Assembly (NCBI GenBank): GCA_030425195.1
Contig: JAUIAV010000024.1
Location: 1-64,000 of the forward strand
DNA length: 64,000 nt
Source: Gammaproteobacteria bacterium
GTDB taxonomy: Bacteria; Pseudomonadota; Gammaproteobacteria; Pseudomonadales; Azotimanducaceae
Direction: 5' to 3'
In this document: in pieces, positions 51,443-55,788 of the stretch
Position numbering within the stretch: the stretch's first letter is position 1
Layout: each line of letters begins with the position of its first letter
Program-made: the position numbers and the translations under genes
Notes under the pieces: generated by a model
What the model was told of the DNA's origin: nothing
The model's input: only the letters and a program-made list of their open reading frames with translations
Databases searched by the model: none

Positions 51443-51967
51443 TCAGTCTTCGTGCAGCCAGGCAGCGTGACGCGGGGCCCGGCGGGTACGGCTCCACTCC
51501 TCGAGCATGTCGTCGGCGACCGCGCGCAGCCGTTCCAGGTCTTCGGCCGTGCCTTTGTCGGCGGCGAGTTCCAGGCGGTGACCGTTAGGGTCGAAGAAAT
51601 AGATGGAATCGAAAATGCCGTGGTTCACCGGACCGAGCACGTCGATGCCGGCGGCTTCCAGCCGTGCCTTCGTGGCGAGCAGTTCGGCGTGATCGGCAAC
51701 CCGGAAGGCGATGTGCTGGACCCATTCCGGCGTGTTCCGATCCCGGTCCATGTCCGGCGCGGTGGGAAGTTCGAAGAACGCCAGCACGTTGCCACCGCCC
51801 GCATCGAGAAAGACGTGCATGTAGGGGTCATCTGCGCCTGTGGACGGTACCCGGTCCTCGGCTATGGCCAGCTTGAAGTCCATGCCCAGATGCTGCCGGT
51901 AGAAGTCCACCGTCTCCCTGGCATCCCGGCAGCGGTAAGCCACGTGATGGATCCCCTGCAGGCTCAT
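51443..51967 (-). CDS. VOC-family (glyoxalase/bleomycin resistance) protein
   Basis: 174 residues. Vicinal oxygen chelate pattern: [29 protein letters not shown] and the Glu-bearing strand [14 protein letters not shown] supply the likely metal ligands. The C-terminal helix is longer than needed for the fold. Its gene overlaps the hppD end by four bases and is co-transcribed with it, so a role in aromatic amino acid breakdown is inferred. Confidence 0.88.
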
Positions 51968-53091
51968 GCGACGTCCGCCTTCCCGCCTTCCAGCACGCCG
52001 CGGCTCTCTTCAAGCACGCCGCGCCTCTCTTTAAGCACGCCGCGGCGCTTCTGATCCCGCTCCATGGATTCGAAGAGGGCCTGGAAGTTGCCTTCGCCGA
52101 AGCCTTCGTCGCGGCGCCGCTCGATGAACTCGAAGAAGATGGGACCGATCAGCGTCTCGGAGAAAATCTGCAGCAGCAGCCGGACATCCCCACCCTCGAC
52201 GCTGCCGTCGAGCAGGATGCCGCGGGCGGCCAGACCGGCGACGTCCTGGCCGTGTCCCGGCAGGCGCTCATCGAGCATGTCGTAGTAGGTATCCGGCGGC
52301 GGCGTCATGAAGGGGACCCCTCTCGCCGCGAGCGCATCCACGGTCCGATTCAGGTCGTCACAGGCCAGGGCGATGTGCTGAATGCCCTCCCCGTTGTACT
52401 GCAGCAGAAACTCCTCGATCTGACCGTCCGCGCCGCCTCGAGCTTCTTCATTGAGCGGAATCCGGATCTTGCCATCCGGTGCCGTCATCGCCCGGGAAAC
52501 CAGTCCGGTCTCCTGTCCCCGGATGTCGAAGTGACGGATCTCCTCGAACGAGAAGTAGCGCTCGTAGAAATCGGCCCAGTAATCCATGCGCCCGCGGTAG
52601 ACGTTGTGGGTGAGATGGTCGATCACCTCGAGACCCACGCCGGCGGGATGGCGGTCCACGCCGTCGAGAAAATTGAAATCGATGTCGTAGATGCTCGCAC
52701 CGTCACCATAGCGGTCGATCAGGTACAGCGGCGCGCCACCGATGCCACGGATGGCCGGGAGACGGAGCTCCATGGGACCGGTGGGGATCTCCAGCGGCTG
52801 GGCGCCCAGGGTCAGCGCCCGATCATAGGCCTGGTGTGCGTCCCGCACCCGGAAGGCCAGCCCGCAGGCCGACGGGCCATGCTCTTCCGCGTGATAAGCC
52901 GCCAGGCTTCTGGGCTCGTAGTTGACGACGAAGTTGATGTCGCCCTGCCGCCAGAGGGTGACCTGCTTCGAGCGATGCACAGCCACCTGCCGGAAACCGA
53001 GCATCTCGAAGACGGGTTCCAGCGCTCCCGGAGCGCGTGCCGAGAATTCGACGAATTCGAATCCATCCAGTCCCATTGGATTGTCTTTCAC
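51964..53091 (-). CDS. hppD: 4-hydroxyphenylpyruvate dioxygenase with repeat-extended C terminus
   Basis: 375 residues from GTG 53091, where GAGGAG lies seven bases upstream; an ATG at 53121 has no ribosome site and one at 53076 would cut the usual start ([12 protein letters not shown]). The HPPD pattern is complete: [11 protein letters not shown] and GIQHIALA (Fe-His), FFEFIERR (Fe-Glu) and [18 protein letters not shown]. It makes homogentisate from 4-hydroxyphenylpyruvate. The normal end (RRGVL) is followed by two near-copies (RRGVL, SRGVL) and a short tail encoded by 21-bp tandem repeats. It is divergent from an Lrp-type regulator. Confidence 0.96.
51992..52054. repeat. 21-bp tandem repeat at the 3' end of hppD
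   Basis: Three successive 21-bp units start with AGCACGCCGCG at 51992, 52013 and 52034. The first two differ at only a few bases; the third diverges in its last third, where it is the original hppD sequence. In the minus-strand reading each adds seven residues. The unit is in frame, so the protein is lengthened without a frameshift. Confidence 0.85.
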
Positions 53092-53162
53092 CGGCCGTCT
53101 CCTCGAATACGCAGATGTCATGAGTTTAGAGGGAACGATCGGCAGAGTTTCTTCTTTTTCTT

Positions 53163-53182: not shown

Positions 53183-53252
53183 GTGGTTTTATCCGCTAAC
53201 CGGCACAATACTGGCAGCATATTGTCTTTTCATACGGATGGAGGCGAACGCC

Positions 53253-53705
53253 ATGGATCAGATCGAGCGACAGATCATCTCTCTCCTTCAGGCCGACGGA
53301 CGCCTGTCCAACGTGGCCCTGGCGGAACAGATCGGTCTGTCCGAATCGCCCACTTACCGACGGGTGAAACAGCTCGAAGACCTGGGTGTGATCCAGGGCT
53401 ATGCCGCCCTCGCGGATCAGCGGCTGCTCGGACTGGAGGTGACCGCGTTCGTGCAGGTCACCATGGAGCGTCAGCCGGACTCCGCCACCGATGCTTTCCA
53501 TGCCCGGGTCGCAGCAGAGCCGCACATCATGGAATGCCATGCCATGAGCGGCTCACACGACTACCTGATGAAGGTGGTTGCCCGGAGCATCGACCACTTC
53601 TCGGAATTGTGCATGGAGCAGATCCTGAAGTTCCCCGGCGTGCAGCACGTGGAATCCAGTTTCAGTCTCAAGGAGATCAAGCACAGCCGGGTGCTTCCTG
53701 CCTGA
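53253..53705 (+). CDS. Lrp/AsnC-family transcriptional regulator
   Basis: 150 residues. N-terminal HTH (MDQIERQIISLLQADGRLSN, ALAEQIGLSESPTYRRVKQL) and C-terminal RAM/ActR-type domain (HIMECHAMSGSHDYLMKVVA). The start at 53253 is chosen since GGAGG lies eight bases before it; the ATG at 53238 is part of that site. Divergent from hppD and convergent with phhA, it probably controls phenylalanine/tyrosine breakdown in response to an aromatic amino acid. Confidence 0.93.
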   Translation: MDQIERQIISLLQADGRLSNVALAEQIGLSESPTYRRVKQLEDLGVIQGYAALADQRLLGLEVTAFVQVTMERQPDSATDAFHARVAAEPHIMECHAMSGSHDYLMKVVARSIDHFSELCMEQILKFPGVQHVESSFSLKEIKHSRVLPA

Positions 53706-53721: not shown

Positions 53722-54966
53722 TCAGGGCTCGCGGCGTATGGCGCGATCCACCCAGATCCGTTGCGTCGCCGGATTGTACCGGGCATAGAACGGCCTCGGC
53801 AGCTGCCGGCAGTGCTCGCGCATGCGCCGCTTCGCTTCCTGCAGCGAGGGTGCCACGAAGTAGGCGTTCTGATAGTCCGTGATCGGAAACGGCCGCTCGG
53901 CAGCAACGGCCGGGGCCCAGTCGAGCCATTCGGGATCGCTGCGTGACACCCCATCGGGCGGATGGCCGCCGCAGGCGTAGGCCAGCTCGCCGGCACTGGA
54001 CAGAAGACCCGCACCGTAGGCCTTGAGCACACCACCTTCCCTCAGCAATCCGAACTCCACCGAATACCAGTAACAGCGGGCCAGACGTTCGATCTCGGCG
54101 TCCGTGGCTCCAAGGCTGGCCAGTCCGATCTCCTGTGAGAATTCGGCGAACGCTGCGTCAGCGAACATGGGCGCATGCCCCATGAGCTCGTGGCAGACAT
54201 CCGGTTCCGGCGTGTAGAGGGGTCTGGAATGGTGCCGGACATACTGGGTCGAGAAGAAGACGCGGAAGGCGAGACCGGCCAGAAAATCCCTCGAGGCCAG
54301 AAGCCCGGGCACCGGGTGGATGCGGAAGCCGGTCCGTGCCGTGAGAAAGGCGCTGACGGTAGCCGCCTGCGGAATATGGTCGGGCCCGAATCCACAGGCA
54401 GCCTCCAGCTCCCGCACCGTTCTGAGGTACGCCTCGCAGGCGTGTCGCGCATGAAGTGGCTTGAGCCATTCATAGACCTGCCGCCAGGTGCCGGTTTCCT
54501 CTTCGCTGTATTCGATCTCAGGGAGCGGCGCGCCCTGCCGGTACGCTCTGGCATGGCGATCGATGCGGGCCCGGCTCTGCCGGTAGTCGGGATCGTTGAA
54601 TCCCGGATGGTCGGCGTCCAGCGCGACCCCGGCATCCAGCGTATTGCCTGCAATTCGGTCGAGCTCGCTGACATGTCGCGGAAACCAGGCTACGGTTTTC
54701 TCATCCAGCAGCAGCACCGGTACCCGTTCGCGCTCGAACGCGTCGAGGAGCTGTCGGATGGCGGGATCATCCGGCTCGCCCTCACAATCCACATAGAAGT
54801 CGAAGCGCTCTCCACGACTCGGCCGGGATTCGATGTGGGTGAGGTTCACTCCGGCGGCGGAGAACCGGTTCAACGCGTCAGCCAGAGCACCCGGCCGGTC
54901 CTTCAATGCGATCAGCAGAGAAAGACGCGGCTCGGACGCCCGTCGCTTCGCCTGTTCCTCGCTCAT
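53722..54966 (-). CDS. phhA: Phenylalanine 4-hydroxylase with N-terminal ACT domain (animal-like architecture)
   Basis: 414 residues. Residues 15-85 are an ACT domain (LIALKDRPGALADALNRF, NLTHIESRPSR). The catalytic domain follows with FPRHVSELDR, LDADHPGFNDP, YTPEPDVCHELMGH (His259, His264), FSQEIGLASLG and YWYSVEFGL (Glu304): the iron triad is intact. Strings such as NLTHIESRPSR, YTPEPD-CHEL-GH and AYGAGLLSS occur in human PAH, whereas common bacterial PhhA proteins are about 260-300 residues without ACT. It ends near PFYARYNPATQRIWV, so the animal C-terminal tetramer helix is absent. Upstream cyclase gene is 12 bp away. Confidence 0.93.
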   Translation of the reverse strand: MSEEQAKRRASEPRLSLLIALKDRPGALADALNRFSAAGVNLTHIESRPSRGERFDFYVDCEGEPDDPAIRQLLDAFERERVPVLLLDEKTVAWFPRHVSELDRIAGNTLDAGVALDADHPGFNDPDYRQSRARIDRHARAYRQGAPLPEIEYSEEETGTWRQVYEWLKPLHARHACEAYLRTVRELEAACGFGPDHIPQAATVSAFLTARTGFRIHPVPGLLASRDFLAGLAFRVFFSTQYVRHHSRPLYTPEPDVCHELMGHAPMFADAAFAEFSQEIGLASLGATDAEIERLARCYWYSVEFGLLREGGVLKAYGAGLLSSAGELAYACGGHPPDGVSRSDPEWLDWAPAVAAERPFPITDYQNAYFVAPSLQEAKRRMREHCRQLPRPFYARYNPATQRIWVDRAIRREP

Positions 54967-54978
54967 GTCTTCATCCCG

Positions 54979-55788
54979 TCAGCGTGAGACCGACGCACCA
55001 TCGTCGAGAATGGCCACGGCCCGGGTCCAGCCCGCGGAGGCACCGCGTATCTTCATCGGAAAGCAGGCGACCCGGAACCCGAAGGGTGGCAGCACTTCCA
55101 GGTTGTGCAGCTTCTCCAGATGGCAGTAGCCGATGTGACGGCCGGCCTTGTGACCTTCCCAGATCAGGCTGGAATCCTTCGTCCTGGCGTATTTCCGGGC
55201 GGTGTGCGAAAACGGCGCATCCCAGGACCAGGCATCCGTGCCGGTCACGCGCACGCCCCGCTCGAGCAGATACATGGTCGCCTCATAGCCCATGCCGCAC
55301 CCGGTATGCACATAGTCATCGCGGCCATAGGCGGTGCCTGCGGCCGTGTTCACCAGCACGATGTCGAGCGACTGCAATCCGTAGCCGATCCGTTCGAGCT
55401 CAGAAGCCACGTCCTCCGCCGTCACCACATAGCCGTCGTCGAAGTGACGGAAGTCCAGCTTCACGCCCGGATTGAAGCACCATTCCAGAGGTACCTCGTC
55501 GATGGTGATCGCGCGCTCCGCCTGGCCCTCGAGCTGCTCGTTCATGGTCGAATGGAAGTGATACGGCGCATCGAGGTGGGTGCCGTTGTGCGTGGACAGC
55601 TTCACCCGCTCCACCGCCCAGCCTTCACCATCGGGCAGATCGCCCGGCTCGAGCCCGGGAAAGAAGGCTGTGACCTGTTCCGGAGTGTCCTGGTGATTGT
55701 AGTAGGTGATCTCCGGCTTCATGCCCGGCGGATCGGAAACCACGTCGTTCTCGAGAAAGATGGACAGATCGATGATGCTGCTCGACAT
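54979..55788 (-). CDS. Cyclase-family protein (kynurenine formamidase/PF04199-like)
   Basis: 269 residues. The metal motif HNGTHLDAPYHFH is diagnostic for this family of Mn- or Zn-dependent hydrolases, which includes bacterial kynurenine formamidase and isatin hydrolase. GTDAWSWDAPF and IWEGHKAGRHIGYCHLEKL follow. Being upstream of phhA in the same unit it may act on an aromatic metabolite. GGAG lies seven bases before the ATG. Confidence 0.87.
   Translation of the reverse strand: MSSSIIDLSIFLENDVVSDPPGMKPEITYYNHQDTPEQVTAFFPGLEPGDLPDGEGWAVERVKLSTHNGTHLDAPYHFHSTMNEQLEGQAERAITIDEVPLEWCFNPGVKLDFRHFDDGYVVTAEDVASELERIGYGLQSLDIVLVNTAAGTAYGRDDYVHTGCGMGYEATMYLLERGVRVTGTDAWSWDAPFSHTARKYARTKDSSLIWEGHKAGRHIGYCHLEKLHNLEVLPPFGFRVACFPMKIRGASAGWTRAVAILDDGASVSR

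What the first reader, a model, noticed from the sequence alone, without database searches (positions are those of the whole stretch)
53722..54966. Bacterial phenylalanine hydroxylase with the animal ACT-plus-catalytic layout
The N-terminal ACT domain and long strings shared with animal PAH (NLTHIESRPSR, LDADHPGF-DP, YTPEP-CHEL-GH, FSQEIGLASLG, AYGAGLLSS) are unlike ordinary short bacterial PhhA. The C-terminal tetramerisation helix is missing, so regulation by phenylalanine would have to work without it. This may represent an ancestor of, or gene exchange with, eukaryotic hydroxylases.
Basis: partly seen in the sequence, partly recalled or inferred. Interest (0 to 1): 0.7.

Follow-up and report, generated by a model that had tools for sequence, protein, structure and literature searches.

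The report
Bacterial phenylalanine hydroxylase of animal type
One small family of proteobacteria carries a phenylalanine hydroxylase built like ours, with an amino-acid-sensing front domain but no tetramer-forming tail, and its closest kin found so far are animal and amoeba enzymes rather than ordinary bacterial ones.

Summary
The 414-codon gene at 54966..53722 (-) encodes an ACT domain plus a full Biopterin_H domain. The tetramerisation helix is absent in it and in all 26 relatives aligned; the beta-arm that dimerises human PAH is kept. The catalytic domain is 50-55% identical to human and Dictyostelium hydroxylases, 23-32% to short bacterial PhhA. Kinship with eukaryotic enzymes as sister group has 97/98 support but is lost on residues 130-385 alone, and only six eukaryotic sequences were available. 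The gene is in 34 of 206 genomes of its family and was found outside it in none of the order, class and phylum samples. Most likely it is a Phe 4-hydroxylase for Phe/Tyr catabolism with an ACT domain that senses Phe, exchanged with eukaryotes; direction open. Side leads: 33 of 34 carriers lack hmgA (as do 36 of 44 other family genomes) and a VOC gene follows HPPD; phage-like contigs carry ACT-less hydroxylases.

The parts
53722..54966 (-). ACT-containing phenylalanine hydroxylase gene, 414 aa
54739..54918 (-). ACT domain (residues 17-76)
   Evidence: Pfam PF01842, 46.0 bits
54814..54846 (-). NLTHIESRPSR (residues 41-51), part of the presumed Phe site
   Evidence: sequence; I45-P49 invariant in 27 of 27
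54577..54693 (-). joint between the domains (residues 92-130), with WFPR and DADHPGF
   Evidence: WFP in 27 of 27 bacterial and 6 of 6 eukaryotic rows, gap in 17 of 17 short PhhA rows
53749..54687 (-). catalytic Biopterin_H domain (residues 94-406)
54055..54192 (-). stretch with the iron ligands H259, H264 and E304
   Evidence: aligned to human H285, H290, E330; 27 of 27
53743..53790 (-). C-terminal beta-arm (residues 393-408), end of the protein without tetramerisation helix
   Evidence: two strands in the model; tails
53238..53705 (+). Lrp/AsnC-type regulator, divergent from HPPD
   Evidence: beside PAH in 9 of 17 named loci
51964..53121 (-). 4-hydroxyphenylpyruvate dioxygenase (HPPD)
   Evidence: TIGR01263 388.7 bits, cut-off 277; in 8 of 17 named loci
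51443..51967 (-). VOC-family protein overlapping the end of HPPD
   Evidence: directly after HPPD in 7 of 7 loci that hold all of HPPD
54979..55788 (-). putative cyclase (PF04199), 12 bases upstream of the PAH gene, same strand

Best explanation
The gene encodes an iron- and pterin-dependent phenylalanine 4-hydroxylase of the eukaryotic (ACT plus catalytic) architecture. An ancestor in this gammaproteobacterial family got it by exchange with the eukaryotic hydroxylase lineage (directly or through an unsampled intermediate), and some genera keep it. It feeds Phe into Tyr/4-hydroxyphenylpyruvate catabolism with the neighbouring HPPD; PhhB recycles the pterin. Inferred mechanism: two subunits pair through the C-terminal beta-arm; free Phe binds at the ACT dimer interface (GAL/ESRP site). 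With no tetramerisation helix, ACT pairing is the only remaining contact between dimers, so Phe should both activate the enzyme and shift it from dimer towards tetramer. Shown: architecture, metal and substrate residues, kinship away from PhhA, distribution, gene context. Inferred: activity, Phe activation, oligomer switch, the transfer and its direction.
For: Architecture and scores. Short PhhA a separate clade, 100/98 and 100/100; ACT-PAH plus eukaryotes 97/98 and 97/96; eukaryotes a clade 94/92 and 99/96. Equivalents of the iron ligands, Phe254, Arg270, Thr278, Glu286, Tyr325, Trp326 and Ser349 in 27 of 27; Ile/Val rather than Asp at 379. Shared WFP joint. Fold: eukaryotic hydroxylases at Z 39-45, short bacterial PAHs at Z 26.5-27.5 in the 50 rows shown. 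Context: HPPD beside it in 8 of 17 named loci; PAH and HPPD identities to the window go together (Spearman 0.95, 8 loci all compared with the window, one with a partial HPPD).
Against: On residues 130-385 with another alignment the eukaryotes are not a clade and the Streptomyces/phage-like rows fall beside the ACT-PAHs with weak support (44/91); holding ACT-PAH plus eukaryotes together costs 0.03 log units, p-AU 0.50. AU tests do not reject ACT-PAH with animals but not Dictyostelium (p 0.063), with Dictyostelium (0.053), with human PAH (0.10), with the Streptomyces/phage-like rows (0.066), or on one side with short PhhA (0.053). ACT domains score higher to prephenate dehydratases than to eukaryotic hydroxylases. 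His264 is Phe and Tyr138 is Ala in 27 of 27, so pterin handling or the lid may differ. No hmgA in this genome, so the downstream route is not the textbook one. phhB is no special sign: 33 of 34 carriers but also 43 of 44 other family genomes. No biochemistry.
Confidence: 0.72

Rival explanations
1. Deep bacterial origin: the ACT-catalytic fusion arose in bacteria, this family keeps a relic of it, and eukaryotes received their hydroxylase from that bacterial lineage; the tetramerisation helix is a later eukaryotic addition.
For: In the two fuller trees the ACT-PAHs fall outside the eukaryotic rows. Their catalytic domains differ among themselves (lowest identity 57.6%) about as much as TH and Dictyostelium PAH do (57.7%). 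ACT-less bacterial and phage-like forms lie between PhhA and this group. None of the 27 has the helix.
Against: Full-length hits outside the family: none in the order, class and phylum samples; no plasmid match covers 80% of it. A relic older than the eukaryotic family would be expected more widely. Other phyla were not searched in depth.
Confidence: 0.25
2. A short bacterial PhhA that gained an ACT domain independently, from a prephenate dehydratase.
For: ACT domains of these proteins score higher against gammaproteobacterial prephenate dehydratase ACTs (median 51.6 bits) than against eukaryotic ones (37.4).
Against: PhhA is a separate clade. The 13 dehydratase ACTs form their own clade, 100/99. 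Eukaryotic ACTs are diverged from both: 37.0 against the dehydratases. The joint between the domains is shared with eukaryotes and absent from PhhA.
Confidence: 0.03
3. Recent capture from an animal host such as a sponge, or eukaryotic contamination of the assemblies.
For: Some carriers look host-associated from their MAG names (recalled, not tested).
Against: 34 genomes, bacterial neighbours, third-position GC like that of neighbouring genes in the window and in the eight loci printed, 31 of 34 hits in one open frame (G545 has one TGA, G466 is cut at a contig end, G583 is in two pieces), and only 48-58% identity to the eukaryotic rows.
Confidence: 0.04

Closest known systems
Eukaryotic tetrameric phenylalanine hydroxylase (TIGR01268; human, rat, Dictyostelium PAH)
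   Same: ACT then catalytic domain, WFPR joint, iron and Phe residues, beta-arm; 54.6% (human) and 50.8% (Dictyostelium) catalytic identity
   Different: no tetramerisation helix, 13 residues before the ACT alignment instead of 33 in human, His264 to Phe, Tyr138 to Ala, an insert near residues 337-350; TIGR01268 score 453.8 under its 704.8 cut-off
Short bacterial PhhA (TIGR01267, NF008877; Chromobacterium, Colwellia, Legionella PAH)
   Same: catalytic fold and iron ligands
   Different: no ACT domain, no joint, no arm of this kind; 23-32% identity to the window; separate clade
ACT-less hydroxylases of Streptomyces/Embleya plasmids (L115, L116) and of phage-like contigs (L110-L114)
   Same: YTPEPD and, in six of seven, an HPG..D..YR stretch; 33-41% identity to the window
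   Different: no ACT domain, no WFPR joint
Prephenate dehydratase ACT domain
   Same: GAL and ES/TRP motifs of a Phe-sensing ACT domain
   Different: fused C-terminally to another enzyme; separate clade

Membership tests
Biopterin-dependent aromatic amino acid hydroxylases (PF00351) | profile score over the cut-off | tested here: met
   438.3 bits against 22.7
Biopterin-dependent aromatic amino acid hydroxylases (PF00351) | His-His-Glu iron triad and main pterin/substrate residues (roles recalled) | tested here: met
   H259, H264, E304, F228, E260, Y299, R244, T252, S323 in 27 of 27; one pterin contact, His264, is not kept
Tetrameric eukaryotic-type PAH (TIGR01268 equivalog) | score over the curated cut-off | tested here: not met
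   453.8 bits against 704.8; best of its models in the window and a match in 21 of 21 members
Tetrameric eukaryotic-type PAH (TIGR01268 equivalog) | N-terminal ACT domain with Phe-site motifs | tested here: met
Tetrameric eukaryotic-type PAH (TIGR01268 equivalog) | C-terminal tetramerisation helix | tested here: not met
   0 of 27 sequences
Tetrameric eukaryotic-type PAH (TIGR01268 equivalog) | activation by Phe; oligomer state | not testable with these tools
   needs the protein
Tetrameric eukaryotic-type PAH (TIGR01268 equivalog) | catalytic domain within the eukaryotic clade | tested here: inconclusive
   sister in two trees (97/98, 97/96); nesting not rejected (p 0.053-0.10); unresolved on residues 130-385
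Short bacterial PhhA (TIGR01267) | score over cut-off and a place in the PhhA clade | tested here: not met
   149.7 against 264.75 bits; PhhA clade without it 100/98, 100/100
Tyrosine or tryptophan hydroxylase | Asp at the position of human PAH 379 (TH) or Phe at 326 (TPH), roles recalled | tested here: not met
   Ile/Val and Trp in 27 of 27; scores under the cut-offs of both models

The most novel reading that the evidence does not exclude
These proteins are a surviving prokaryotic branch of the stock from which all eukaryotic aromatic amino acid hydroxylases came. The ACT-catalytic fusion, dimer arm and Phe sensing came first, as a Phe-driven dimer-to-tetramer switch made by the ACT pairs alone, and the helix that locks animal enzymes into tetramers was added later in eukaryotes.
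Probability: 0.22. Interest if true: 0.75.

Novelty: new variant of a known kind. Interest (0 to 1): 0.56.

Why it matters
Passages read in PMC3821034 describe studied PAHs as tetramers (eukaryotes) or monomers (bacteria), with the dimeric Legionella enzyme as the exception. An ACT-bearing form without the tetramer helix cuts across that split and is a natural test of whether Phe activation needs the tetramer. It is also a much closer outgroup than PhhA for rooting the family of phenylalanine, tyrosine and tryptophan hydroxylases, the enzymes of phenylketonuria and of monoamine synthesis. If it is transfer between domains of life, it is a case with many genomes and synteny to work from.

Tried and rejected
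Rejected: independent ACT fusion on PhhA, contamination, TH or TPH activity judged from two active-site positions.

Led nowhere: a viral-contig scan with two conserved peptides of the family matched 20 stretches, none a relative; phage records none. PDB fragment queries were needed to print the Dictyostelium sequence. The ACT-only tree cannot be rooted and does not make the ACT-PAHs a clade (L109 falls beside the dehydratases, 89/46). AF2 places the ACT domain differently from crystal PAH (6.0-7.3 A over both domains, 1.2-2.4 A for catalytic domains alone); from 21 sequences and one chain I draw nothing from that. phhB is no marker. The fumarylacetoacetase search had no control genome over the cut-off, so its negative is weak; the two hmgA searches rang in the control Caulobacter.

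Limits: the genome-contig scan used exact peptides of one protein and so finds close kin only. Other phyla were not searched except through plasmids and IMG/VR contigs. At most 4 or 8 candidates per genome were scored. Trees used 27 ACT-PAHs (window plus 26). Of 40 short-type loci held (L009-L013, L034-L062, L122-L127) 17 went into and 10 into; one search dropped seven short rows (the long L034 among them), seven ACT-PAH rows and rat PAH; one search dropped L109 and L008 as well. In one search only 2 prephenate dehydratases were caught because the script looked for ESRP; one search has 13. An earlier count said 8 of 8 for HPPD-VOC; entry 4 corrects it to 7 of 7.

Full report
WHAT IS THERE. The minus-strand ORF 54966..53722 encodes 414 aa with an ACT domain (17-76) and a Biopterin_H domain (94-406). 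The best PDB matches are human and rat PAH (395.8 to 392.3 bits), then TPH2 365.2, TPH1 363.1, Dictyostelium PAH 360.8 and, among full-length chains, TH 341.3; short bacterial PAHs score at most 116.4. NCBIfam gives the same order: TIGR01268 453.8, TPH 411.7, TH 395.5, short PhhA models 201.4 and 149.7; none reaches its cut-off. It is the only PF00351 match in the genome.

ANATOMY. In an alignment of the window, 26 relatives and six eukaryotic sequences from the PDB, the iron triad, the Phe contacts checked and the pterin-stacking Phe are invariant; Trp at human 326 and Ile/Val at 379 fit PAH rather than TPH or TH (residue roles are recalled). GAL (Ala to Ser/Thr in 3, Gly to Ala in 1 of 27) and ESRP (27 of 27) mark the Phe site of the ACT domain, where human TPH1 and TPH2 have ESRK. 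Two positions differ from human PAH in all 27: His264 to Phe and Tyr138 to Ala. At the first, short PhhA has Pro (17 of 17) and the two Streptomyces/Embleya forms His. All 27 end 7-14 residues after human Val423: the beta-arm is there, the helix is not. The AF2 model (mean pLDDT 81.6, pTM 0.76) shows the arm as two strands, 393-398 and 403-408, with nothing ordered after it. Structural second look: eukaryotic hydroxylases Z 39-45, short bacterial PAHs Z 26.5-27.5, among the 50 rows shown.

KINSHIP. Catalytic tree of 57 rows: short PhhA separate at 100/98; ACT-PAHs a clade 95/96; eukaryotes a clade 94/92; the two joined at 97/98; next come the Streptomyces-type and phage-like ACT-less forms. 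A 42-row tree without the long rows agrees (97/96; ACT-PAHs 92/94; eukaryotes 99/96; PhhA 100/100). Cut to residues 130-385, with another alignment and two more rows dropped, PhhA stays apart (100/100) and the ACT-PAHs stay a clade (95/94), but the order among eukaryotes, ACT-PAHs and the intermediate forms is lost. So 'not PhhA' is firm in all three trees, while 'sister to eukaryotic hydroxylases' is likely, helped by the shared ACT domain and WFP joint, but not proven. AU tests reject none of five other groupings at 0.05 (p 0.053 to 0.10). The ACT domain is not a recent loan from a prephenate dehydratase of this order: 13 such domains form their own clade, 100/99; yet the ACT-PAH ACTs are not a clade in that 89-column tree.

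DISTRIBUTION. Full-length hits: 6 of 57 close relatives, all in the window's own family; 34 of 206 genomes and 9 of 37 genera of that family, of which G545 has one internal TGA, G466 is cut by a contig end and G583 is in two pieces; 4 of 390 in the order, all own-family; 1 of 369 in the class and 1 of 398 in the phylum, the window's own genome each time. The named-genome scan gave 17 loci, all titled as Gammaproteobacteria, Pseudomonadales or K189A-clade MAGs. Plasmids: 47 records, none covering 80% of the protein. Phage records: none.

CONTEXT. An Lrp-type regulator, HPPD and a VOC gene lie beside the PAH gene in the window. Of 17 named loci, 9 have the Lrp gene, 8 HPPD (one cut by its contig end) and 7 the VOC gene directly after HPPD; in three of these PAH follows VOC. 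The other nine loci show neither HPPD nor VOC in the DNA held, some of it short. Identity to the window in PAH tracks identity in HPPD (Spearman 0.95, 8 loci, not independent pairs), so where linked the genes seem to have travelled together. PMC1173090 (passages) suggests an Lrp-family gene as the ancestral regulator of the Phh pathway. phhB is on another contig and in 33 of 34 ACT-PAH genomes, but also in 43 of 44 others.

FUNCTION. Best reading: Phe to Tyr for catabolism through HPPD, with Phe sensed by the ACT domain; activity and regulation are inferred. A gap remains downstream: no hmgA in this genome (control Caulobacter positive), and hmgA in 1 of 34 ACT-PAH genomes; but 36 of 44 other family genomes tested lack it too, so the absence is not special to carriers. 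No fumarylacetoacetase was seen (18.8 bits, cut-off 375.3), a weak negative since no control passed either. The VOC protein has conserved His and Glu residues in the five sequences aligned. Its relatives sit as hppD-VOC-fahA in an Ideonella plasmid and fahA-maiA-VOC in an Acinetobacter plasmid, but with no such genes in an Acidovorax plasmid. It may replace hmgA; that is a lead, not a result.

LITERATURE. Searches (listings and starts of abstracts seen; longest lists capped at 12-25) showed no paper on a bacterial ACT-containing PAH. Passages were read in PMC10244343, PMC3458870, PMC5046115, PMC3821034 and PMC1173090. The library lacks most subscription papers; the 2008 Dictyostelium PAH phylogeny was seen only in reference lists. 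Prior notice cannot be excluded.

VERDICT. A real, native bacterial ACT-PAH, so far seen in one family: a new variant of a known enzyme, with open and testable questions about the direction of transfer and about Phe regulation without the tetramer helix.

Noticed in passing
51443-51967 and 51964-53121; L129, L130, L131: HPPD is followed by an overlapping VOC gene while hmgA is absent from 33 of 34 ACT-PAH genomes (and 36 of 44 other family genomes). Relatives of the VOC gene lie with fahA or maiA and no hmgA in Ideonella and Acinetobacter plasmids, not in Acidovorax. Candidate alternative homogentisate-cleaving enzyme; the one paper search on it (listing) showed nothing to the point.
   Followed up: partly
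L110:4661-5467, L111:7927-8733, L112:2-604, L113:796-1593, L114:3643-4464: Five IMG/VR contigs carry ACT-less Biopterin_H hydroxylases (L110: 258.3 bits in Pfam, no PHROG match). Neighbours look phage-like on L110/L111 (dUTPase, ThyX, amidase) and L112 (endolysin, DNA methylase, HNH), weakly on L113 (T4 gp19-like, under the cut-off); L114 is unclear.
   Followed up: partly
L015, L016, L019, L021, L024: Five other genomes of the order (four of the window's family) carry a long divergent aromatic amino acid hydroxylase (565-674 aa frames, 25-29% identity over part of the catalytic core) and no full-length ACT-PAH.
   Followed up: no
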